Origin: Synechococcus sp. CBW1108
Lineage (GTDB): Bacteria; Cyanobacteriota; Cyanobacteriia; PCC-6307; Cyanobiaceae
NCBI RefSeq assembly: GCF_015840335.1
Contig: NZ_CP060395.1
Location: 1,835,277 to 1,899,276, forward strand
Direction: 5' to 3'
Length of the DNA stretch: 64,000 nt
Shown here: positions 14,277-25,850 of the stretch, piece after piece
Layout: each line of letters starts with the position of its first letter
Position numbering within the stretch: position 1 is the first letter of the stretch
Made by a program: the position numbers and the translations under genes
The notes under the pieces: generated by a model
Seen by the model: only the letters and a program-made list of their open reading frames with translations
Databases searched by the model: none
Told to the model about the DNA's origin: nothing

Positions 14277-14456
14277 CTAATCATTGATCTCATTTAAGAA
14301 TTGCTCTAATACCTCTGCGGCAAGACTGCTTAGCGAGCATCCTTCCCTGATGCTCTGCTTCTGCAGGATCTCGTATAGAGAATGCGGGAGTGAGATGCTG
14401 ATTTGTCTAGGTTTTTTAAAATCTGCGCCAGGAACGCTGTCGTTATTTAGTTCGGT
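14277..14456 (-). pseudogene. RHH protein A', split by the IS66 insertion
   Basis: Main coding part of a small CopG-like ribbon-helix-helix protein: DFKKPRQISISLPHSLYEILQKQSI, then REGCSLSSLAAEVLEQFLNEIND and a stop. The 5' end lies 8.1 kb away at 22573-22583 (GTG start at 22583). Joining the halves at the 8-bp duplication gives MTELNNDSVPGADFKKPRQ, an intact protein of about 61 aa. It is a paralogue of the RHH protein at 23046-23225 (FRKPQRITITVPKSVYEYL). RHH proteins bind DNA as dimers and act as antitoxins or repressors; no toxin is visible here. IS66 inserted within the first five codons. Confidence 0.75.
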
Positions 14457-14876
14457 GTAAGCATTCAGGGGTCGGGACGCGCCGCCGCGCGAATGCGCGC
14501 CTCATCGCTCATCTCTGAGTGAGCAAAGATGCGGTGCCACCCTTTCTTCTGCCCTCAGGGATCGCTCAGCAGTGACGGCATCACCCCACCGCGGTGATGG
14601 GAGATCCAGGCCTGCTCGAGGAACTCCCAGACATCCCGCCCCTGTTGCCTAAGGGTGGTGGTGACTGTGAGCAGGCGGCTGCGGCAGATGGCACCGCTGG
14701 CTGATTGGACGCCGTGACTGATCTTGCGCTGAATCACCGACTGGCGCAGCGCACGCTCTGCGGCGTTGTTGGTGGGCTCGTGTCCGCCGACAATGAAGTT
14801 GGCCGGTCGGCGACAAGCTCGTTGGCCGGTGGGGTGAGTGCTGGAGACCCTGGTGCCGATGCGCAGGGACCAGGTG

Positions 14877-16475
14877 ATGCCGGCACCACTGACAAGCCAC
14901 CAACGCAATCTGTTCATGACGAAACGACGAGGCGGCAGCAGCCAGGAGGCTGCTGCCGCGGCGGCGGGCATCTCAGTGCGCAGTGCTCGCCGGATTGAAT
15001 GCAATCAGCTGCAGCCGCGGGCGAACCAGCCCCGTGGCCGCACCCGCCCCGATCCGCTGGTAGGGGTATGGGAGGAGGAGCTGGTGCCGTTGCTGCAGCG
15101 CTCACCCGCGCTGACGCCGATCACGCTCCTGGAGCATCTGCAGCAGCAGAAACCTGATGTGGACTGGATTCCGCTACAGCGCACCCTGCAGCGCCGGGTG
15201 CGGGAGTGGAAGGCACTGCACGGCCCGGCGCCGGAGGTGATCTTCCCTTTGAGCTATGAGCCTGGCGAAATTGCCTTCTGTGACTTCACCCAGCTCAAGG
15301 GGGTGGAGGTGACGATCGCCGGCCAGGTGTTCCCCCATCTGCTGTTCCACTACCGCCTGGCCTGGAGCGGCTGGAGCTACGCGCAGGTGGTCCAGGGCGG
15401 CGAGAGTTTTGCCGCCCTCTCCGAGGGTCTGCAGAACGCTCTGGCTGCCTGCGGCGGGGTGCCAGGTGAACTGCGCACCGACCGGTTATCAGCAGCGTGC
15501 CGTAACCGCAACGGCAGTTTCAGCTCCGACATCACCCGCCGTTATCACGCCCTCTGCAGCCACTACAGCCTGGCCTACAGCCGCAACAACCTGGGGGTGG
15601 CGCATGAGAACGGCCGTGTGGAGAGTCCTCATGGCCATCTCAAACGGCGGATCGAGCAGGCGTTGCTGCTGCGCGGCAGCAGTGATTTCGAGACGCTGGC
15701 TGAATACCAGGCTTTTCTGGCCGCGGTGATTGACCAGTACAACAGGCCGCGCCTGATCCGGCTGGAGCAGGAGCAGGCGGCGCTGCGGCCACTACCGCGG
15801 TTTCGTTTTGCCGACTACGACATTGAACAGCTCACGGTGCGGCGCACCAGCACGATCGAGGTACGCAGAGTCGTGTATTCGGTGCCGCCGCGGCTGATCG
15901 ACCAGCGGCTGACGGTGCGGATCTTCCACGACCGGCTGCAGCTGCTTCTGGGCCGGCAGATCGCCTGCGAACTGGAGCGGCGCCACGGCGGTGTCGAGCG
16001 TCATGGGCGGGCGTGGAGCATCGATCTGGAGCACCTGATCGATGCGCTCAGGCGAAAACCCCGGGCATTGCTGCACTGCAGTTACCAGCGGGAGCTGTTC
16101 CCCGATGAGCGCTGGTGGCAGCTGTGGCAGCAGCTGCGCAATGGCGGTGACCGTGACGCCGCCGCCCGATTGATGGTCGAGGCGCTGTATGTGGGCTGCC
16201 GCCTGGCGGGCTACGAGCCAGTGCTGGGTTGGCTCGAGAAGGCCCATCAACGGCAAGGGCTGTCGCTGGCGGCGCTGCAGCAACGCTTCCGGCTGCCGCC
16301 CCATCGCCCCCACCCACCGCAACGCATTCCCCAACACAGCCTGCAGAGCTATGACGACCTCCTTGCCCTCCATCCCGCGGCCCCAGGCGGCGGAAGCCGC
16401 CCTGCCGATCCTGCTGCGACAGCTGCGGTTGGCATGGATCCGCTGCCACTGGCAGAGCATCGCCTCGCAGGCTGA
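14877..16475 (+). CDS. istA: IS21 transposase IstA
   Basis: DDE-type transposase. From the ATG at 14877 (MPAPLTSHQRNLFMTKRRGG) it is 532 aa. There is an N-terminal helix-turn-helix (SQEAAAAAAGISVRSARRIE), then catalytic residues in EIAFCDFTQLKG (D), ELRTDRLSAA (D) and HENGRVESPHGHLKRRIEQ (E), and a C-terminal domain. The in-frame ATG at 14838 would add residues not typical of the family. It overlaps istB by about 125 bases, which is more than usual. It appears intact. Confidence 0.9.
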   Translation: MPAPLTSHQRNLFMTKRRGGSSQEAAAAAAGISVRSARRIECNQLQPRANQPRGRTRPDPLVGVWEEELVPLLQRSPALTPITLLEHLQQQKPDVDWIPLQRTLQRRVREWKALHGPAPEVIFPLSYEPGEIAFCDFTQLKGVEVTIAGQVFPHLLFHYRLAWSGWSYAQVVQGGESFAALSEGLQNALAACGGVPGELRTDRLSAACRNRNGSFSSDITRRYHALCSHYSLAYSRNNLGVAHENGRVESPHGHLKRRIEQALLLRGSSDFETLAEYQAFLAAVIDQYNRPRLIRLEQEQAALRPLPRFRFADYDIEQLTVRRTSTIEVRRVVYSVPPRLIDQRLTVRIFHDRLQLLLGRQIACELERRHGGVERHGRAWSIDLEHLIDALRRKPRALLHCSYQRELFPDERWWQLWQQLRNGGDRDAAARLMVEALYVGCRLAGYEPVLGWLEKAHQRQGLSLAALQQRFRLPPHRPHPPQRIPQHSLQSYDDLLALHPAAPGGGSRPADPAATAAVGMDPLPLAEHRLAG

Positions 16476-17142
16476 GGGCGAGGGCTGGAGCCCCAGTCAG
16501 TTTCTCTATGCCCTGTGCGAGCAGGAAATGGAGCAACGCCAGCAGGCCCGCCAGCACCGGCTGCTGCGCGCGGCCCAGCTGCCCTGGAGCAAAGCGCTGG
16601 CGGACTACGACCATGGCGGCCGGATCGAGGCGCACCGATGGCAGGAACTGGAGGCCTTGAGCCGCCAGAGCGAGTGGCTGCAGCGGGGCGAGAACGTGCT
16701 GCTGTTCGGCCCCAGCGGTGTGGGCAAGACGCACCTGGCGGTCGGCATCGCCTTGGCGCAGATCGGCCTGGATCAGGCCTGCCGCTTCTATCCCGCCACG
16801 AGCCTGGTGCAGGAGCTGCAGAAGGCCCGCGCCGAATACAACCTGCCGGCAGCGCTGGAGCGGCTGGATCGCTACCCGCTGCTGCTGATCGATGACATTG
16901 GCTATGTGCGGCGGGATGAACAGGAGAGCAGCGTGCTGTTTGAGCTGATCTGCCACCGCTACGAGCGCCGATCGCTGCTGATCACCGCCAATCAGCCGTT
17001 CACCGCCTGGGATGAGATCTTCCCCAGCAGCTCAATGACCGTGGCGGCGGTGGACCGGCTGGTGCACCACTGCCACATCGTCGAGATCAGCGGCGACAGC
17101 CACCGCCGCGCCCAAGCAAGCCGGCGCAGCGGCAGCAAATAG
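16351..17142 (+). CDS. istB: IS21 helper ATPase IstB
   Basis: 263-aa AAA+ protein that remodels target DNA and activates IstA. Walker A is GPSGVGKTHLA and Walker B is LLLIDDIGYV; ITANQPF corresponds to sensor 1. The start is the ATG at 16351 (MTTSLPSIPRPQ), inside the 3' end of istA in another frame. It appears intact, so this copy may still be able to transpose. Confidence 0.9.
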   Translation: MTTSLPSIPRPQAAEAALPILLRQLRLAWIRCHWQSIASQAEGEGWSPSQFLYALCEQEMEQRQQARQHRLLRAAQLPWSKALADYDHGGRIEAHRWQELEALSRQSEWLQRGENVLLFGPSGVGKTHLAVGIALAQIGLDQACRFYPATSLVQELQKARAEYNLPAALERLDRYPLLLIDDIGYVRRDEQESSVLFELICHRYERRSLLITANQPFTAWDEIFPSSSMTVAAVDRLVHHCHIVEISGDSHRRAQASRRSGSK

Positions 17143-19916: not shown

Positions 19917-20185
19917 GGCGGCGTTGCCGGTGGGGGCGCCGGTCTCATCCACGTAAGCCACCGGTTGCTGACGGGCGGCCGCAAGCGCCTGGGCCATCGG
20001 TTCCGCCAATGCTGCGCTCAGGCGCTGGCGGACCCGTGCGATTGCCCCACAGCTAATTCCACTCCCACCAGCTGCTGGAGCAGGGCCTGGGTCTTGCTGA
20101 AACTCAAGTGGAAGGCACTGCCCAGCAGGCCCACCAGGGCACTGAGCCTGCCTGCGTCCCCCGCAGTGGTGTAATTCCCCTGGGC

Positions 20186-20212
20186 CTCAGCCCCGGCGTA
20201 GCCGGGGCTGAG
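20186..20212. promoter_or_regulatory. hairpin in the IS256 leader
   Basis: A 12-bp perfect stem, CTCAGCCCCGGC with its complement, has a three-base loop between the left end and the transposase start. Such leader hairpins can limit read-in transcription from outside promoters; here that role is inferred from position only. Confidence 0.5.
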
Positions 20213-20361
20213 CGTCCGCACCTCAAGCGATCGGCTCAGCGGCTGGCGTTGCAAGGGGCGGGGCACCCCGCGAATTCAGCGCCTCGGGCGCTGGATTCGT
20301 GGGGACCCCGGGTGGGCAGGCCCGTTTCCCTGGTTCGAGTACCACCTCAACCAGACGAACC

Positions 20362-21588
20362 ATGCCCAAGCACCATGCTGCCGTGCCTGAACTGGCGGCG
20401 CTACTCGATGGCAGCAGCGCCGGTGAGCTGATCCCCGAGCTGGCCCGCTACGGCCTGCAGCAGCTGATCGAACTGGAGGCCTCCGCTGTGGTCGGTGCCG
20501 ATCGCCATGAGCGCAGCGAGGAGCGGGTCAACCAACGCAATGGCTACCGGCCTCGCACCCTGACCACCCAGGTGGGGGATCTCGCCCTGCAGATCCCCAA
20601 ACTGCGAGCCGGCAGCTTCCTGCCCACGATCCTCGAGCCCCGCCGCAGGGTCGATCAGGCCCTGTACGCGGTGATCATGGAGGCCTACATCAGTGGCGTC
20701 TCGACCCGCAAGGTGGATTCCCTAGTGGCGGCGCTGGGTTCCCAGAGCGGCATCTCCAAGTCGCAGGTGAGCCGCATCTGTCAGGACATCGACCAGCAGG
20801 TGCAGGCGTTCCTGGGCCGGCCGCTGGAGAGCAGCAGCTACGCCTACGTCTACCTGGATGCCACCTACCTCAAGGGGCGCCTGGGCAAGGCCCAGCAGGT
20901 CTGCTCCCGCGCTGTCGTCGTCGCCATGGGGGTCAACGAGGACGGGCGCCGGGAGTTGCTGGGCCTCAAGGTGGGTAACAGTGAGAGCGAGCCCTTCTGG
21001 GCGGAGTTCATCTCCCACCTCAAAGAGCGGGGTCTGGGTGGCGTCAAGCTGGTGATCTCTGACGCCCACAGCGGCCTCACCAAGGCGATCCGCAGGCAAT
21101 TGCAGGGCTGCGTCTGGCAGCGCTGCCGGGTGCATTTTGCCCGCAACCTGCTGCAGTGTGTTCCCAGGGCTCACCAAGGCATGGTCACCGCTGCCCTGCG
21201 CAGCGTGTTCGCCCAAGAAACCGCTGAGGAGATCGAGTCGCGCTGGGATGATCTGGCGGCCTCGCTGGCGGAGCGCTTCCCCAAGGCCGCTGCGCTCATG
21301 CACGAGGCCAAGGAGGACGTGCTGGCTTTCCGCCACTTCCCCAAGGACCACTGGCGCAAGATCTGGAGCACCAACCTGCTGGAGCGGGTGAACGAGGAGA
21401 TCAAGCGCCGCACCAGGGTCGTGGGCATTTTTCCCAACGACCCTGCGATCATCCGCCTAGTCGGGGCGGTGTTGCTGGAGCAACACGAGCACTGGCAGCT
21501 GGAGGGCCGCCGCATGTTCTCCGCCGAGAGCATGGCGACCATCCCCGAACTGGGCGACACCCCTACCCTCCAGGCCGCCGGCGCCTGA
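20362..21588 (+). CDS. IS256-family (mutator type) transposase
   Basis: 408 aa from the ATG at 20362 (MPKHHAAVPELAALLDG). Mutator-type motifs are visible: RNGYRPRTLTTQVGDLALQIPKLR, YLDATYLKGR (catalytic D), VISDAHSGLTKAI (D), WQRCRVHFARNLL (the C-x2-H motif) and LERVNEEIKRRTRVVGIFPN (E). Length is normal for the family. The in-frame ATG at 20299 is less likely. It appears intact and functional. Confidence 0.95.
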   Translation: MPKHHAAVPELAALLDGSSAGELIPELARYGLQQLIELEASAVVGADRHERSEERVNQRNGYRPRTLTTQVGDLALQIPKLRAGSFLPTILEPRRRVDQALYAVIMEAYISGVSTRKVDSLVAALGSQSGISKSQVSRICQDIDQQVQAFLGRPLESSSYAYVYLDATYLKGRLGKAQQVCSRAVVVAMGVNEDGRRELLGLKVGNSESEPFWAEFISHLKERGLGGVKLVISDAHSGLTKAIRRQLQGCVWQRCRVHFARNLLQCVPRAHQGMVTAALRSVFAQETAEEIESRWDDLAASLAERFPKAAALMHEAKEDVLAFRHFPKDHWRKIWSTNLLERVNEEIKRRTRVVGIFPNDPAIIRLVGAVLLEQHEHWQLEGRRMFSAESMATIPELGDTPTLQAAGA

Positions 21589-22207
21589 GAGCTGCAGGAA
21601 ACAGGCCCCAGGTGATCGAGGCTGCAGCGCCTCTACAGGGCGCAGCGGTCTTGATCGCCGCCCGGGGGCCGGGGCAACAACCTGTAGCTGGTGCCAGCCA
21701 CTCCAGAACACAACACATCCGCGATCGGGCGAAAGACTTGACAAGTCAATCGCCCTTGATTCAAGGTGAAAAAACGAGGTGCATCTGCGCCTCCGGAATG
21801 ACAGCCCGTCATTCCACCCTGTTCACCCTCTGATCAGGGCATTCGGGCCTCGGGTTTTACACCACGCAAAGGGACGCGGTCCTGAGCCTTGGGCCGTAGT
21901 GACTGGCTTCCACATCAGCCGGCAACGTCGCGCAGGTGCTGGTGGAGCAGCAGGGGCACACCAGGCGATGCAACCGGTGCTCGATCACCAGCGGTGTGAT
22001 CGGTGGTATCTCAATCACCTGATGGCGCATGGGATCTGGATCCTCCCCCACTCCCTGCAGCAACGTGCCACAGCGGCGGCAGGCATCGGGGTGGTGTTCC
22101 ACCACCTCATCCACCCGCTCGATCGGCAGCAGTTCCGGCCCCGATCCGGGATGGCCCGGCTGGCCGCCCCGCTTGCGACCACTGCCCTTGCGCCGCTCTG
22201 GCGGCTT

Positions 22208-22290: not shown

Positions 22291-22621
22291 GTGGAGTTGC
22301 GGGAGCTGCGACCAATCCGCTCCCGCAGGCTGGCCAGCTCGCTCGCCAGGGCGGTGAGTTGGCTGCGGAGCAGCTCAATCTCCTCATGCTGGGAAAGGAT
22401 CAGCTCTCTTGCACCAGCCGGCCAGGTCTCCCAGTCAGCTTCTGAAATTCCGGCCGGAGGTGTGCTCATCACAAGCAGTCTCTGCCTGAGATACAACCGG
22501 TAATAAAGCTGCCGTCAAGGGTTCAGCAGGGACAATGTTCGCACTGAGCCGTCCCGACCTCTGAACAGTTACAGTTCGGTCACCCACCTTAATCCCCGTG
22601 CTTTGCCTTGGTGGCCTTGTG

Positions 22622-22627
22622 ATTATA
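22622..22627 (-). promoter_or_regulatory. -10 hexamer upstream of the split RHH gene
   Basis: A perfect TATAAT on the minus strand lies about 40 bases before the GTG start at 22583. No convincing -35 is seen; the expected position falls in the C/G run at 22645-22661. Confidence 0.4.
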
Positions 22628-22644
22628 AGCGTAACCATTCCTTG

Positions 22645-22661
22645 CCCCCCCCGGGGGGGGG
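22645..22661. repeat. C8G9 palindromic homopolymer tract
   Basis: Eight C residues are followed by nine G residues and then an AT-only stretch. Self-complementary and prone to slippage, it sits in the promoter region of the interrupted RHH gene, where length changes could alter expression. Confidence 0.7.
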
Positions 22662-22748
22662 TAAATATATTTACAAACTATTGCAACAATGGCGCTCGTC
22701 TCCGCCTCGTGCGATGCATCTTCTGATCTGAGGAACCGCCTTCCCGCT

Positions 22749-22928
22749 TTACGGAAGATCTGCTTTCTTGGAGAGGATATCAGTCACCACCTCTGAGAGT
22801 GAGCGACCAGTGGCGCTCGCAATTGACTGGAGAGATTCAATGACCTCCTCGCTCAAATCAAGGTCAAGTCGTACAGGAAACAACTTGGGGTCAAGTCGGA
22901 AGGCGCTATCCGCTTCATCTTTTACCAT
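22749..22928 (-). CDS. RHH protein B (CopG-like)
   Basis: 59 aa: MVKDEADSAFRLDPKLFPVR, then LDLDLSEEVIESLQSIASATGRSLSEVVTDILSKKADLP. The pattern is a short beta strand (VRLDLDL) followed by two helices separated by GRSLS, typical of ribbon-helix-helix DNA-binding proteins and antitoxins. A frameshifted paralogue lies at 23358-23533. No toxin-like gene is adjacent. Stop and start agree with codon usage, and the neighbours on the same strand are other RHH genes. Confidence 0.72.
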   Translation of the reverse strand: MVKDEADSAFRLDPKLFPVRLDLDLSEEVIESLQSIASATGRSLSEVVTDILSKKADLP

Positions 22929-23045
22929 TTCAGATTTCTCTGTGAGGTGATGACATCGGTTTCAACCTACTCCATGATGCCCGGCAGATTCGTTGCGCCA
23001 CAAATGCTTTTATCCACAACGGTGGCAGTTAGGTGGCGGTAGTTC

Positions 23046-23225
23046 TTATCTGCCTTCAGCGGAGCGCTCCAGCAGGTAGGAGGCATAGTTGCTGAGCGAA
23101 CGCCCTTCATAGGCACTTGTCTCCACTAGATATTCATAGACTGACTTCGGGACTGTGATGGTGATCCGCTGGGGTTTTCTAAAGGCAACAGATTGCTTGT
23201 TGCCACCATTAATGTCGCTGTGCAT
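23046..23225 (-). CDS. RHH protein A (CopG-like)
   Basis: 59 aa from the ATG at 23225 (an ATG at 23249 adds MLLILTNP). AFRKPQRITITVPKSVYEYLVETSAYEGRSLSNYASYLLERS is a canonical RHH: strand RITITVP, helix, EGRSLSNYAS turn, helix. It is paralogous to the IS66-split protein A'. It probably acts as a dimeric DNA-binding repressor or antitoxin. It lies between the two B-type RHH genes, giving the order B'-A-B-A'. Confidence 0.72.
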   Translation of the reverse strand: MHSDINGGNKQSVAFRKPQRITITVPKSVYEYLVETSAYEGRSLSNYASYLLERSAEGR

Positions 23226-23357
23226 CGGGTTTGTGAGTATCAGCAGCACAAATATAATGAATCTCTGTAGCGATGCAACCCTTGAGGCGTGACCATTTAT
23301 ACTTATTTGCTTTCTTGGGCGTTTTCTGTAGAGTTCTTCGTTTTCGCAAAAACTCTT

Positions 23358-23533
23358 TTACGGTTCTAATGCTTTGGAGAGGATATCGGTTGCGACCACC
23401 GAGAAGGAGCGTCCTGATCCTTCTGCTGTTTTTTCATTTTCCCCGCGATATCACTTCTTAATTCCAGTTCTATGCGCTTGGGGAAGTTCTTAGGGTCTAA
23501 GTAGAAGGAGGTTGCTGTGTCGTCAGTGGTCAT
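23358..23533 (-). pseudogene. RHH protein B', frameshifted
   Basis: The start MTTDDTATSFYLDPKNFPKR with IELELRSDIAGKMKK aligns with protein B (MVKDEADSAFRLDPKLFPVR). After KKQQ the matching sequence continues in another frame as AEGSGRSFSVVATDILSKALEP and a stop, aligning with ATGRSLSEVVTDILSKKADLP. One frameshift near the middle inactivates it, unless there is a sequencing error. Confidence 0.7.
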
Positions 23534-23606
23534 TTCTGGTGTAAAAGCGTAAAATAGATACTAGGTCTCCCTGTCTGGTATTGCTTGATACTGATTCAAG
23601 GATGTT

Positions 23607-24636
23607 CTTGATTACCCAGCTCGCTCCGCGCACCGCGAGCCTGGGCCGTAGACTGGTACGCACATACCAGTTCAGTCATGGCGCGCAACGTCATCCAGTT
23701 CCAGAAAGGCCTTTCACTGCCTGACTTCCAGCGGCTCTACGGCACCGAGGTGCAATGTGAGGCTGCTTTGGAGAAGGCGCGCTGGCCCGGTGGGTTCCGC
23801 TGTCCCCGCTGCAATGGCCATGAGCATGGGCTGGTCTATGGCCGCAGGCTCAAGCGCTATCAGTGCCGCAGCTGCGGCCATCAGGCCACGCTCACGGCTG
23901 GCACGATCATGCAGGCCACGAAATTGCCTCTGACCACCTGGTTTCTGGCCTTTTACATGATCGGGCAGGCCAAAACAGGGATCTCCTCGCTGGAGCTCAG
24001 CCGCCACCTGGGCGTGAACTACGACACCGCCTGGCTGCTGCACCACAAGATTCTGCGGGCGATGGCTGATCGGGAGGAGGCTTACCTGCTGCGGGGAAAA
24101 GTCCAGATCGATGATTCCTACCTCGGCGGAGAACTGCCGGGCGGCAAGGCAGGTCGGGGTTCAGAGAACAAGATCCCCATCGTCGCGGCCGTCTCCTTGA
24201 ATGAGGCGGGCCGGCTGATTCACGCCAGGATCACAGCCGTGAGTGGCTTCAGCTCAGAGGCCATCGCTGAGTGGGCCAAGCGCCATCTGGCGCCCGGCAG
24301 TCAGGTGCTCTCCGATGGCCTGGCCTGCTTTCGTGCCGTGACCACGGCAGGCTGCAGCCATCACGCCATCGTCACCGGTGGGAAGCACCCAAACGACTTG
24401 CCGCAGTTCCGTTGGATCAACACCGTGCTGGGCAACCTCAAGACCGGCTTCAACGGCACCTTCCACGCTTTCAATTTCGACAAGTACGCCAGGCGCTACC
24501 TGGGCGGCTTCTGCTTCCGGTTCAACCGGCGCTTCTCGATGGTTGCGATGACTGATCGCATTGCCAATGCGGTCTGTTGCTGCATGCCCTGCACGGAGCG
24601 GGATCTCAGGGTTGCGGAGGCTTATGGGTAATCAAG
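23607..24636 (+). mobile_element. IS1595-family element
   Basis: 1030 bp with perfect 12-bp ends CTTGATTACCCA / TGGGTAATCAAG and an 8-bp duplication AGGATGTT at 23599-23606 and 24637-24644. One intact transposase gene, whose stop codon lies in the right inverted repeat. It inserted between the RHH cluster and the 24680-25257 gene pair. Confidence 0.93.
23678..24631 (+). CDS. IS1595-family (ISXO2-like) transposase
   Basis: 317 aa. An N-terminal zinc ribbon (CPRCNGHEHG...YQCRSCGHQATLTAGTIM) is followed by the ISXO2-like DDE domain: KVQIDDSYLGGE (D), SQVLSDGLACF (D) and a C-terminal HPNDLPQFRWINTVLGNLKT with FHAFNFDKYARRYLGGFCFRFNRR. The ATG at 23678 gives the full family length. It appears intact. 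Confidence 0.95.
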   Translation: MARNVIQFQKGLSLPDFQRLYGTEVQCEAALEKARWPGGFRCPRCNGHEHGLVYGRRLKRYQCRSCGHQATLTAGTIMQATKLPLTTWFLAFYMIGQAKTGISSLELSRHLGVNYDTAWLLHHKILRAMADREEAYLLRGKVQIDDSYLGGELPGGKAGRGSENKIPIVAAVSLNEAGRLIHARITAVSGFSSEAIAEWAKRHLAPGSQVLSDGLACFRAVTTAGCSHHAIVTGGKHPNDLPQFRWINTVLGNLKTGFNGTFHAFNFDKYARRYLGGFCFRFNRRFSMVAMTDRIANAVCCCMPCTERDLRVAEAYG

Positions 24637-24679
24637 AGGATGTTTAACTCTGCCTCGGAGACCCCCCAAAAAAATCTAC

Positions 24680-25057
24680 TCACTGAGAAATCATCAGGTA
24701 GTGAGTGCTAATCGGTTGTGCCCTCCCATCCCGTTGTGCCTGCCTCTGGAGACCCTTGATGGCATCCCGAACTTCGGGATCGTAGTCCCAACTGGTTCTT
24801 GACCGTGAGCGCAGAATCCATCCACCAGGGGCACGAACTCCAAATCGCAGTTCAGCATCGCCAAAGGTGCTTAGTAGTTCGGCGTCAATTACCTGCCTCT
24901 CCTGCTCCAGGGTCTTGATGGTGCCTGTGACATCTACCCGTCTGCTGAGAAGGGCATCAGGACTCAGATTTGCCTGATGGGGGAAGGGTTCTGGTCGTTC
25001 AGGAGGCAGGGTCTGGAGGACTCTGTGGAGTGCTTCTGGATCAATTGGTGGGGTCAT
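24680..25057 (-). CDS. hypothetical 125-aa protein paired with a small RHH-like gene
   Basis: Not recognised by name. LSRRVDVTGTIKTLEQERQVIDAELLSTFGDAELRFGV is probably helical; it is followed by a beta-rich GGWILRSRSRTSWDYDPEVRDAIKGLQ. This layout recalls small phage or plasmid proteins of cyanobacteria, but I cannot name a function. The start ATG overlaps the stop of the upstream gene by 4 bases, so they are translationally coupled. A partner role in a toxin-antitoxin pair is possible but unproven. Confidence 0.6.
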   Translation of the reverse strand: MTPPIDPEALHRVLQTLPPERPEPFPHQANLSPDALLSRRVDVTGTIKTLEQERQVIDAELLSTFGDAELRFGVRAPGGWILRSRSRTSWDYDPEVRDAIKGLQRQAQRDGRAQPISTHYLMISQ

Positions 25058-25257
25058 AAGAGATTATTGTCTTCAATTGCACCTTCTTCCACTAGTCGTG
25101 CGTAATAGAGGTCAATGGCGTCTTCCACGATTGCCGAGAGGGTGGTGGGTTGGTTGATGCGTCTACGGAATCCTTGGATCCGAGTCACCAGACCCATCGT
25201 TTCATTTGGCAAACGCACAGAGAATTGCTGAGGGGCGTCTGGATGCTCGTGTGCCAT
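25054..25257 (-). CDS. small RHH-like protein C
   Basis: 67 aa from the ATG at 25257 (MAHEHPDAPQQFSVRLPNE); an ATG at 25305 is also in frame. The pattern is strand QFSVRLP, helix TMGLVTRIQGFRRRI, a loop with TTLSAIVE and a second helix DAIDLYYARL, consistent with a ribbon-helix-helix fold. It precedes and overlaps the 125-aa gene by ATGA. It is more distant from the A and B proteins. Confidence 0.55.
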   Translation of the reverse strand: MAHEHPDAPQQFSVRLPNETMGLVTRIQGFRRRINQPTTLSAIVEDAIDLYYARLVEEGAIEDNNLL

Positions 25258-25325
25258 TTCTGCTGTGGCGTGTGGTTTGATTCTGGCGGGGAAGACCACC
25301 AGCACCGGCAGAGATAAGGAAGCGC

Positions 25326-25850
25326 ATCTGGGATCCTCTATTGGGATTCTGGGAAAAGGTGTTGGAGGGGCGAACTTCTAAAAGTTTTTGCCTCTCAACA
25401 CTGAAATCATAGCATTATATAGGGTAGTTATGGTGCTGGATGCTCAAAAGTCATCAAAGGGCAACCAGTTCTGGTTCCTCCTGAGACGCTACGACCTCCA
25501 GAGCGACCGCATCTAGAACCTGATCGGCAACAGAGCGGTGATTGGTGGGGGAGAACAGATTCTTGAACTCGGTGCCGATGGTGGTGGAAAAGTAGGTCGG
25601 CGGCAAACGCCAGTGCTTGACCATCACAGCATTACTCAGGTTGCCATCGGAAGCGTGATCGGATGACTCCTGTTCCCACTGACAGACCTCGTGCGGATGG
25701 AAGAGACGATGACATCATGAGCAACATTTATAGTGCCCAGGTCAATGGAGGAGAAGTCGGTTGGCATTGGTCTGATCCTCTTTGGGATTCGGATAAAGGT
25801 CTTGGAGGGCGGGTTTCTTTGATTTTTTCGCCCTTAACACTCAACTCATC
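25326..25850. repeat. imperfect direct repeat of about 85 bp
   Basis: 25326-25410 and 25766-25850 share ATCCTCT..TGGGATTC..G..AAAGGT.TTGGAGGG and a later TCAACACT/TTAACACT-like block, roughly two-thirds identical by eye. The first copy is just upstream of the RHH-like gene at 25257, so the repeat may be duplicated promoter DNA. Confidence 0.5.
25454..25714 (-). pseudogene. possible C-terminal gene fragment
   Basis: A minus-strand frame without a good start reads HPHEVCQWEQESSDHASDGN, then VMVKHWRLPPTYFSTTIGTEFKNLFSPTNHRSVADQVLDAVALEVVASQEEPELVAL and a stop. It looks like protein and lies upstream of and parallel to the RHH-like operon, but I recognise no family. An internal ATG at 25624 would give 56 aa. 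The rest of 25306-26153 holds no gene I can support; the plus-strand frame at 25663-25944 crosses the direct repeat and is unconvincing. Confidence 0.35.

What the first reader, a model, noticed from the sequence alone, without database searches (positions are those of the whole stretch)
22573..23533. Duplicated pair of small RHH genes without toxins
Read on the minus strand the order is B', A, B, A': two B-type and two A-type RHH proteins alternate, implying that a two-gene B-A unit was duplicated. One copy of each has been damaged (B' by a frameshift, A' by IS66), leaving one intact A and one intact B. No toxin ORF fits in the gaps. Two different RHH proteins kept as a pair may form a dedicated regulator, which I do not know from described systems.
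Basis: partly seen in the sequence, partly recalled or inferred. Interest (0 to 1): 0.6.

Follow-up and report, generated by a model that had tools for sequence, protein, structure and literature searches.

The report
Toxin-less pair of small regulator genes
Two small DNA-binding-type proteins, one normal and one with an unusually acidic DNA-contact face, are kept side by side in many freshwater and marine picocyanobacteria without any toxin gene, which points to an undescribed two-part genetic switch.

Summary
On the minus strand the order is B'(frameshift)-A-B-A'. A' is proven: the IS66 insertion left a perfect 8-bp target duplication (ACCGAACT at 22573-22580 and 14449-14456), and the rest of A' lies at 14277-14456, beyond an 8.1-kb nested insertion. 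B' groups with B of a congener, and A with A of another. B is sister to the B' clade, and A' is divergent. So these are two old B-A units, and the surviving A and B come from different ones.

B-A adjacency recurs: 44 of 63 B loci in picocyanobacterial genomes have an A within about 650 bp (about 0.3% expected by chance), in all orientations. Some loci carry a third RHH gene, C, upstream of B. Both genes are under purifying selection, cognate pairs co-diverge, and no toxin family or conserved hidden ORF accompanies them.

The two proteins differ at the DNA-contact ribbon. A keeps CopG-like R-x-T-x-T (51-52 of 52). B has acidic residues at the two threonine positions (57/64 and 60/64).

Best explanation: A is a CopG-type DNA binder and B is an acidic-ribbon RHH partner that restrains A, probably through mixed dimers. 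The partnership is well supported; the mechanism is inferred.

The parts
23364..23533 (-). B' : acidic-ribbon RHH gene of unit 1, split by a -1 frameshift after about codon 29-33; the C-terminal half (GRSFSVVATDILSK) is still readable in another frame
   Evidence: groups with the intact B of G143 with support 99/86
23046..23225 (-). A : intact CopG-like RHH gene of unit 1 (R-x-T-x-T ribbon); a longer GTG start at 23249 is possible
   Evidence: Pfam RHH_5 33.4 bits against a cut-off of 26; AlphaFold model matches the CopG-DNA complex best; nearest row is A of G195, support 88/78
22749..22928 (-). B : intact acidic-ribbon RHH gene of unit 2 (LDPxxFP N-terminal motif, R-x-D-x-D ribbon)
   Evidence: Pfam DUF6364 27.5 bits against 27.3, weaker RHH_1/RHH_5/FitA-like; AlphaFold pLDDT 84 with the RHH helix pair; top fold matches are RHH repressors, CopG first
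22573..22583 (-). A' 5' stub: GTG start (22581-22583) and the left copy of the IS66 target duplication ACCGAACT (22573-22580)
14277..14456 (-). A' remainder: right copy of ACCGAACT (14449-14456) and the RHH body (DFKKPRQISISLPHSLYEILQKQSIREGCSLSSLAAEVLEQ) up to the stop codon
14457..22572 (-). IS66-family element that interrupts A' (ends GTAACTG.../...GCTTAC), itself enlarged by nested insertions (IS256-type at 20147-21882, an istA/istB-like pair around 14838-17142)
23600..24650 (+). IS1595/ISXO2-type transposase element between B' and the upstream genes; absent from the orthologous G195 locus, where the upstream gene directly adjoins B-A
   Evidence: Pfam DDE_Tnp_IS1595; inverted repeat I1; synteny with L071

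Best explanation
The locus holds two old, diverged copies of a toxin-less two-gene module of picocyanobacteria, now partly broken. A is a CopG-type ribbon-helix-helix protein that most likely binds DNA through its R-x-T-x-T ribbon and represses its own promoter or that of a neighbour. B is a second RHH protein whose ribbon carries acidic side chains where DNA binders carry Thr, Ser, Arg or Asn, so it is unlikely to bind DNA in the usual way. I propose that B pairs with A, most simply as a mixed RHH dimer whose ribbon cannot dock into DNA, and thereby titrates or re-targets A: A would be the DNA-binding half and B the antagonist half of a small switch. In some loci a third RHH protein, C (R-x-T ribbon), sits directly upstream of B. 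Shown: the anatomy, the two units, the IS66 event, the conserved adjacency, purifying selection, co-divergence, the absence of a toxin and the ribbon residues. Inferred: DNA binding by A, mixed dimers and antagonism. In this genome B' and A' are broken, so any working switch would have to use A of unit 1 with B of unit 2, or the module is decaying.
For: Adjacency: 44 of 63 B loci have A within about 650 bp, 20 of them tandem B>A, also convergent, divergent and A>B; the chance expectation is at most 0.73% per locus. Adding C, 49 of 64 B have an A or C neighbour, and at least four of the rest lie at contig ends. Co-divergence: tree distances of B and A correlate (r = 0.247; maximum of full shuffles 0.150), and only 27 of 5000 within-genome partner swaps reach the observed value. 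Selection: dN/dS is 0.02-0.25 for B and 0.06-0.38 for A in most cross-species pairs that are not saturated or nearly identical. Ribbon: A has R 51/52, T/S 52/52 and T/S 52/52; B has D/E 57/64 and 60/64 at the equivalent threonine positions. CopG contacts bases through Arg4 and Thr6 and the backbone through Thr8 (PMC8251345). None of 29 RHH_1 control proteins from other cyanobacteria has both positions acidic, and one has a single acid (19 of them are one near-identical family). Folds: both models match RHH repressors, CopG first. No toxin: no toxin family recurs among 143 flanking ORFs, and there is no conserved hidden ORF.
Against: No heterodimer could be modelled, because only single chains were accepted, and none is known for separate RHH genes in the papers searched. 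No shared operator-like motif was found upstream of A or B. Acidic residues could still contact bases (Glu/Asp to cytosine or adenine amino groups), so B may be a DNA binder with another specificity. Orientation varies, so the genes are often not co-transcribed, which a fixed-stoichiometry pair would usually need. B frames are broken in several genomes (G195, G068, G163, G247 and here), so B is dispensable there. At 10 or more loci B has neither A nor C nearby.
Confidence: 0.42

Rival explanations
1. B and A are two independent DNA-binding RHH regulators at one locus (as with CdrS/CdrL in archaea), each with its own sites and linked by cross-regulation but not by mixed dimers. The acidic ribbon of B simply gives a different base preference.
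For: Both have the full RHH fold. B keeps Arg at the first ribbon position in most rows (46/64). Variable orientation fits separate transcription units. CdrL binding upstream of cdrS is a precedent (PMC7439475).
Against: Two conserved acidic side chains facing the major groove were not seen in 29 control RHH_1 proteins or in A. Conserved LDPxxFP before the ribbon suggests a protein-contact role (inference).
Confidence: 0.27
2. B and A are orphan antitoxins: remnants or anti-addiction copies whose toxins are encoded elsewhere or were lost.
For: B scores weakly with RelB/BrnA antitoxin models and FitA-like RHH. A and B proliferate in some genomes (7 B and 12 A in G134). The host range is rich in toxin-antitoxin systems (general knowledge).
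Against: B and A lack the C-terminal tail by which RHH antitoxins usually hold a toxin. The same two partners stay together under purifying selection in at least 26 genomes. No toxin family recurs in the flanks. B has no full-length homologue outside the family.
Confidence: 0.17
3. B-A adjacency is only hitch-hiking: the pair travels as a small mobile or island cassette and the two genes have no functional link.
For: The unit is present in G064/G134 but absent from the same intergenic site in G209 and a second G064 locus. Many units lie in islands with IS elements, and some within a few kb of tRNA genes. No boundary repeats tie the unit to a known element.
Against: Each gene is under purifying selection. 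The partners stay adjacent even after one gene has been flipped relative to the other. Some pairs sit at the same core-gene site in several species, such as the MFS/beta-glucosidase site in G177, G209 and G165.
Confidence: 0.12

Closest known systems
CopG (RepA) repressor of plasmid pMV158, RHH family
   Same: A aligns with CopG over its ribbon and both helices (E 0.0004), and the A model matches the CopG-DNA complex best. R4, T6 and T8 of CopG correspond to R, T and T of A.
   Different: CopG works alone as a homodimer for plasmid copy control. A is chromosomal and has a second RHH gene, B, with an acidic ribbon beside it.
CdrS/CdrL of haloarchaea (PMC7439475)
   Same: Two different small RHH regulators encoded next to each other, without a toxin.
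   Different: cdrS is tied to ftsZ2, and CdrL carries an extra zinc-ribbon domain. B-A has no such third gene and a different phyletic range. Mixed dimers are not described there.
Aux1/Aux2 of conjugative plasmid pLS20 (PMC5675868)
   Same: Two different RHH proteins encoded side by side and acting in one process.
   Different: They are relaxosome accessories next to a relaxase. No relaxase was seen in the flanks of B-A.
FciC of the CA4-A island of marine Synechococcus (PMC3877281)
   Same: A 55-67-aa RHH protein in the same family of cyanobacteria, next to AraC-type regulators. A-type genes lie next to AraC-type genes in L067, L084, L090 and possibly L174/L185.
   Different: No B partner is described for fciC.
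Type II toxin-antitoxin modules with RHH antitoxins (RelBE, ParDE, VapBC/FitAB)
   Same: Small, mobile, clade-scattered two-gene units with an RHH protein.
   Different: The second gene is another RHH protein, not a toxin, and gene order and orientation vary.

Membership tests
RHH (MetJ/Arc/CopG) superfamily, for A | Ribbon plus two helices, recognised by profile and fold | tested here: met
   Pfam RHH_5 above cut-off in A, and 20 of 20 alignment members match RHH_5 at E up to 0.1; fold matches all RHH
RHH (MetJ/Arc/CopG) superfamily, for B | Ribbon plus two helices, recognised by profile and fold | tested here: met
   DUF6364 just above cut-off; RHH_5 matches in 19 of 25 members at E up to 0.1; fold matches RHH, CopG first
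DNA-binding RHH repressor, for A | Polar or basic side chains at the ribbon positions that contact DNA | tested here: met
   R 51/52, T/S 52/52, T/S 52/52; CopG contacts from PMC8251345
DNA-binding RHH repressor, for B | Polar or basic side chains at the ribbon positions that contact DNA | tested here: not met
   D/E at 57/64 and 60/64 of the two threonine positions, against 0 of 29 controls with both acidic. Arg at the first position is kept in 46 of 64.
DNA-binding RHH repressor | Specific operator binding and autoregulation | not testable with these tools
   An unbiased upstream motif and inverted-repeat test was negative; binding needs an experiment
Type II toxin-antitoxin module | Toxin gene next to the antitoxin gene | tested here: not met
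   No toxin-sized ORF in the window gaps, no conserved hidden ORF, no recurring toxin family in 143 flanking ORFs (8 of 33 Pfam families were not displayed)
Type II toxin-antitoxin module | Antitoxin with a toxin-binding tail beyond the RHH domain | tested here: not met
   The window A and B are 59 aa and end within a few residues of the second helix
CdrS/CdrL-type linked RHH regulators | Two RHH genes at one locus without a toxin | tested here: met
CdrS/CdrL-type linked RHH regulators | Linkage to ftsZ2 and a zinc-ribbon domain in CdrL | tested here: not met
   No FtsZ among the displayed flank families; A and B are single-domain
Relaxosome auxiliary RHH pair (Aux1/Aux2) | Relaxase gene and oriT alongside | tested here: not met
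   No relaxase among the displayed flank families

The most novel reading that the evidence does not exclude
B founds a family of acidic-ribbon RHH proteins that cannot bind DNA and that switch off a neighbouring DNA-binding RHH protein (A, or C) by forming mixed dimers. This would be a bacterial counterpart of the dominant-negative Id proteins of helix-loop-helix factors, made of two proteins of about 60 residues, spread as small cassettes through picocyanobacteria and using no toxin.
Probability: 0.28. Interest if true: 0.78.

Novelty: new variant of a known kind. Interest (0 to 1): 0.52.

Why it matters
Small RHH genes without a toxin are routinely annotated as orphan antitoxins. A conserved pair in which one member keeps the DNA-contact residues and the other replaces them with acids would be a minimal two-protein switch. 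The acidic ribbon gives a direct, testable prediction (B binds A, not DNA). The pair is present in cultured Synechococcus/Cyanobium relatives, so this can be tested with two very small proteins. It also offers a general way to look for antagonist partners of RHH regulators in other genomes.

Tried and rejected
- Hidden toxin in gaps or overlapping frames: 82 other ORFs in 12 aligned units were compared. Matches are antisense or out-of-frame shadows of A and B with shifting ends.
- Toxin in flanks: 143 ORFs from 26 loci against Pfam, PADLOC and NCBIfam showed no recurring toxin family.
- Shared operator: no k-mer or inverted repeat above dinucleotide shuffles.
- Plasmid origin: B has no plasmid match and A has two weak Nostoc/Calothrix matches.
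- Phage origin: A occurs unannotated in Synechococcus phages S-CBP1 and S-CBP3, and as a hypothetical protein in S-SRP02, but without B.
- Conserved programmed frameshift of B: G195 B is also frameshifted at the same codon region, but B' groups with the intact G143 B (99/86), so the two breaks are probably independent.
- A' as chance similarity: at first doubted, because only a stub precedes IS66. Settled by the 8-bp target duplication.
- B-A as a classical mobile element: an empty site exists but no terminal repeats were found.
- RNA elements: none in Rfam over 22300-25400.
- Named-genome scan: two alignments were too diverse to be accepted. A narrower one found five loci; one of its five rows carried a residue typed wrongly by me (D for F in the G087 sequence), which affects only that scan. 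Row 15 of alignment A3 also has a mistyped N-terminus; this touches only non-core columns.

Full report
SETTING. The window is part of a single-contig 3.23-Mb genome (G000:C1:1835277-1899276) of the picocyanobacterial family that holds Cyanobium and Synechococcus. Named relatives with close B genes are Cyanobium NIES-981-like MAGs and Synechococcus sp. CS-1331. The region is an island crowded with insertion sequences: an IS256-type transposase at 20299-21588, an istA/istB-like pair around 14838-17142, an IS1595-type element at about 23600-24650, and IS66 fragments.

OBSERVATION. On the minus strand the genes are B' (23364-23533), A (23046-23225), B (22749-22928) and A'. A is RHH_5 above cut-off. 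B scores with DUF6364 and several RHH families. B' carries the same N-terminal motif and ribbon in one frame and the second helix in another.

A' looked doubtful at first. Other IS66 copies in the genome place the IS end at 22573, and only 11 bases separate that end from the GTG start. The other end of the same IS66 lies 8.1 kb away. There the sequence resumes with the identical 8-bp flank ACCGAACT, followed by a complete RHH body ending at 14277. IS66 elements are known to duplicate 8 bp on insertion (general knowledge), so this proves that the stub at 22573 and the 'A paralogue' at 14277-14456 are one gene split by IS66. The element was later enlarged by further insertions.

TWO OLD UNITS. 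Trees place B' with the intact B of G143 (99/86), next to B of G140 and G195. The intact B is the sister of that group, A pairs with A of G195 (88/78), and A' is on a long branch. DNA of G195 aligns with the B'-A stretch and continues directly into the gene at 24680-25057; in the window the IS1595 element sits between them. The array is therefore unit 1 (B'-A) plus unit 2 (B-A'), both old. The surviving A and B belong to different units.

B-A IS A REAL PAIR. With a B profile in 400 family genomes, B occurs in 36. Full-length B was not found outside the family in 386 genomes of the phylum. I fetched the surroundings of these B loci. A lies within about 650 bp in 44 of 63: 20 tandem B>A (93-240 nt between domains), 13 convergent, 7 divergent and 4 A>B. 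Given the density of A genes, chance gives 0.26% per locus on average. The loci are not all independent, since some are syntenic orthologues. Upstream sequences collapse to 38 of 52 for A and 48 of 61 for B. B and A co-diverge: r = 0.247, shuffles at most 0.150, and 27 of 5000 within-genome partner swaps reach it. Both genes evolve under purifying selection. In about 16 loci a third RHH gene, C (MPRLTIALDEKDHLALKLL...), lies upstream of B on the same strand, including five loci that lack A.

NO TOXIN. Other ORFs in the units are shadows of A and B with shifting ends. Flanks are ordinary genes (alanine racemase, chlL-type Fer4_NifH, MFS, OCP N-domain, CobD, SelR) and transposases. No toxin family recurs in Pfam, PADLOC or NCBIfam, although eight once-matched Pfam families were not displayed.

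THE RIBBON. CopG contacts bases through Arg4 and Thr6 and the backbone through Thr8 (PMC8251345). A has R, T/S and T/S at these positions in 51, 52 and 52 of 52 rows. B has R in 46/64 but D/E in 57/64 and 60/64 at the two threonine positions. In 29 RHH_1 proteins from other cyanobacteria none has both acidic (most of these are one near-identical family, leaving about 12 distinct ribbon patterns). C is canonical, R-x-T-x-A/T/S. AlphaFold models of A and B give the RHH helix pair, and both match CopG best. So B looks like an RHH protein whose DNA face has been turned acidic while the fold is kept, beside a partner whose DNA face is canonical.

HOW IT MAY WORK. The RHH ribbon is made of one strand from each monomer (general knowledge). 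A mixed A-B dimer would put B's acids next to A's contact residues and should bind DNA poorly. B would then titrate A, or change its target. Conservation of adjacency in all orientations fits partners that must be inherited together rather than an operon with fixed stoichiometry. This step is inference: no mixed dimer could be modelled, and no operator was found. Rivals are two independent regulators, orphan antitoxins, and hitch-hiking on small cassettes. An empty site exists in G209 and in a second G064 locus.

KNOWN RELATIVES. Two linked RHH regulators without a toxin exist: CdrS/CdrL (PMC7439475) and Aux1/Aux2 (PMC5675868). FciC of the CA4-A island is a small RHH protein next to AraC regulators in the same cyanobacterial family (PMC3877281), and A-type genes next to AraC-type genes were seen here. 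Nothing in the searched library describes an acidic-ribbon RHH partner.

VERDICT. The pair is a real, undescribed, clade-restricted module; its mechanism remains to be tested.

Noticed in passing
window 24680-25257 (-): Another RHH-like small gene (ribbon QFSVRLPNE) overlaps by 4 bp a 125-aa gene of unknown family; fragments or homologues of this pair lie near B-A units in L071, L081, L090 and L067. It has the layout of a toxin-antitoxin pair but no family match.
   Followed up: partly
L080:6947-7141, L074:7765-7959, L171:3835-3990 and about 13 other loci: Third RHH family C upstream of B on the same strand (19-135 nt in nearly all of them), sometimes forming C-B-A, sometimes C-B without A.
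   Followed up: partly
L071:7616-7770 (G195) and window 23364-23533: B genes of two congeners are frameshifted at the same codon region beside A-runs, apparently independently; B is also broken in G068, G163 and G247.
   Followed up: partly
L106:2920-3138, L108:695-913, L107:2989-3174: A-type RHH genes in Synechococcus phages S-CBP3 and S-CBP1 (not annotated) and S-SRP02 (hypothetical protein), without B.
   Followed up: partly
L067:5295-6552, L084:1405-2727, L090:7181-8498: A-type gene directly followed by an AraC-type regulator, reminiscent of fciC with fciA/fciB of the CA4-A island.
   Followed up: partly
L068:1525-1728, L069:9853-10053, L070:3346-3549, L087:1522-1722, L091, L085, L101: A 67-aa protein of unknown family (VNTHDSWGLVQVG...) recurs near B genes.
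   Followed up: no
window 22640-22672: Between B and A' lies GTAAATATATTTAC next to a C8G8-type perfect palindrome; possible operator, terminator or assembly-prone repeat.
   Followed up: no
L079:7078-7872 against L104:12981-13029 and L103:14497-14630: Presence/absence of a whole B-A unit at one intergenic site of marine relatives, without obvious terminal repeats.
   Followed up: partly
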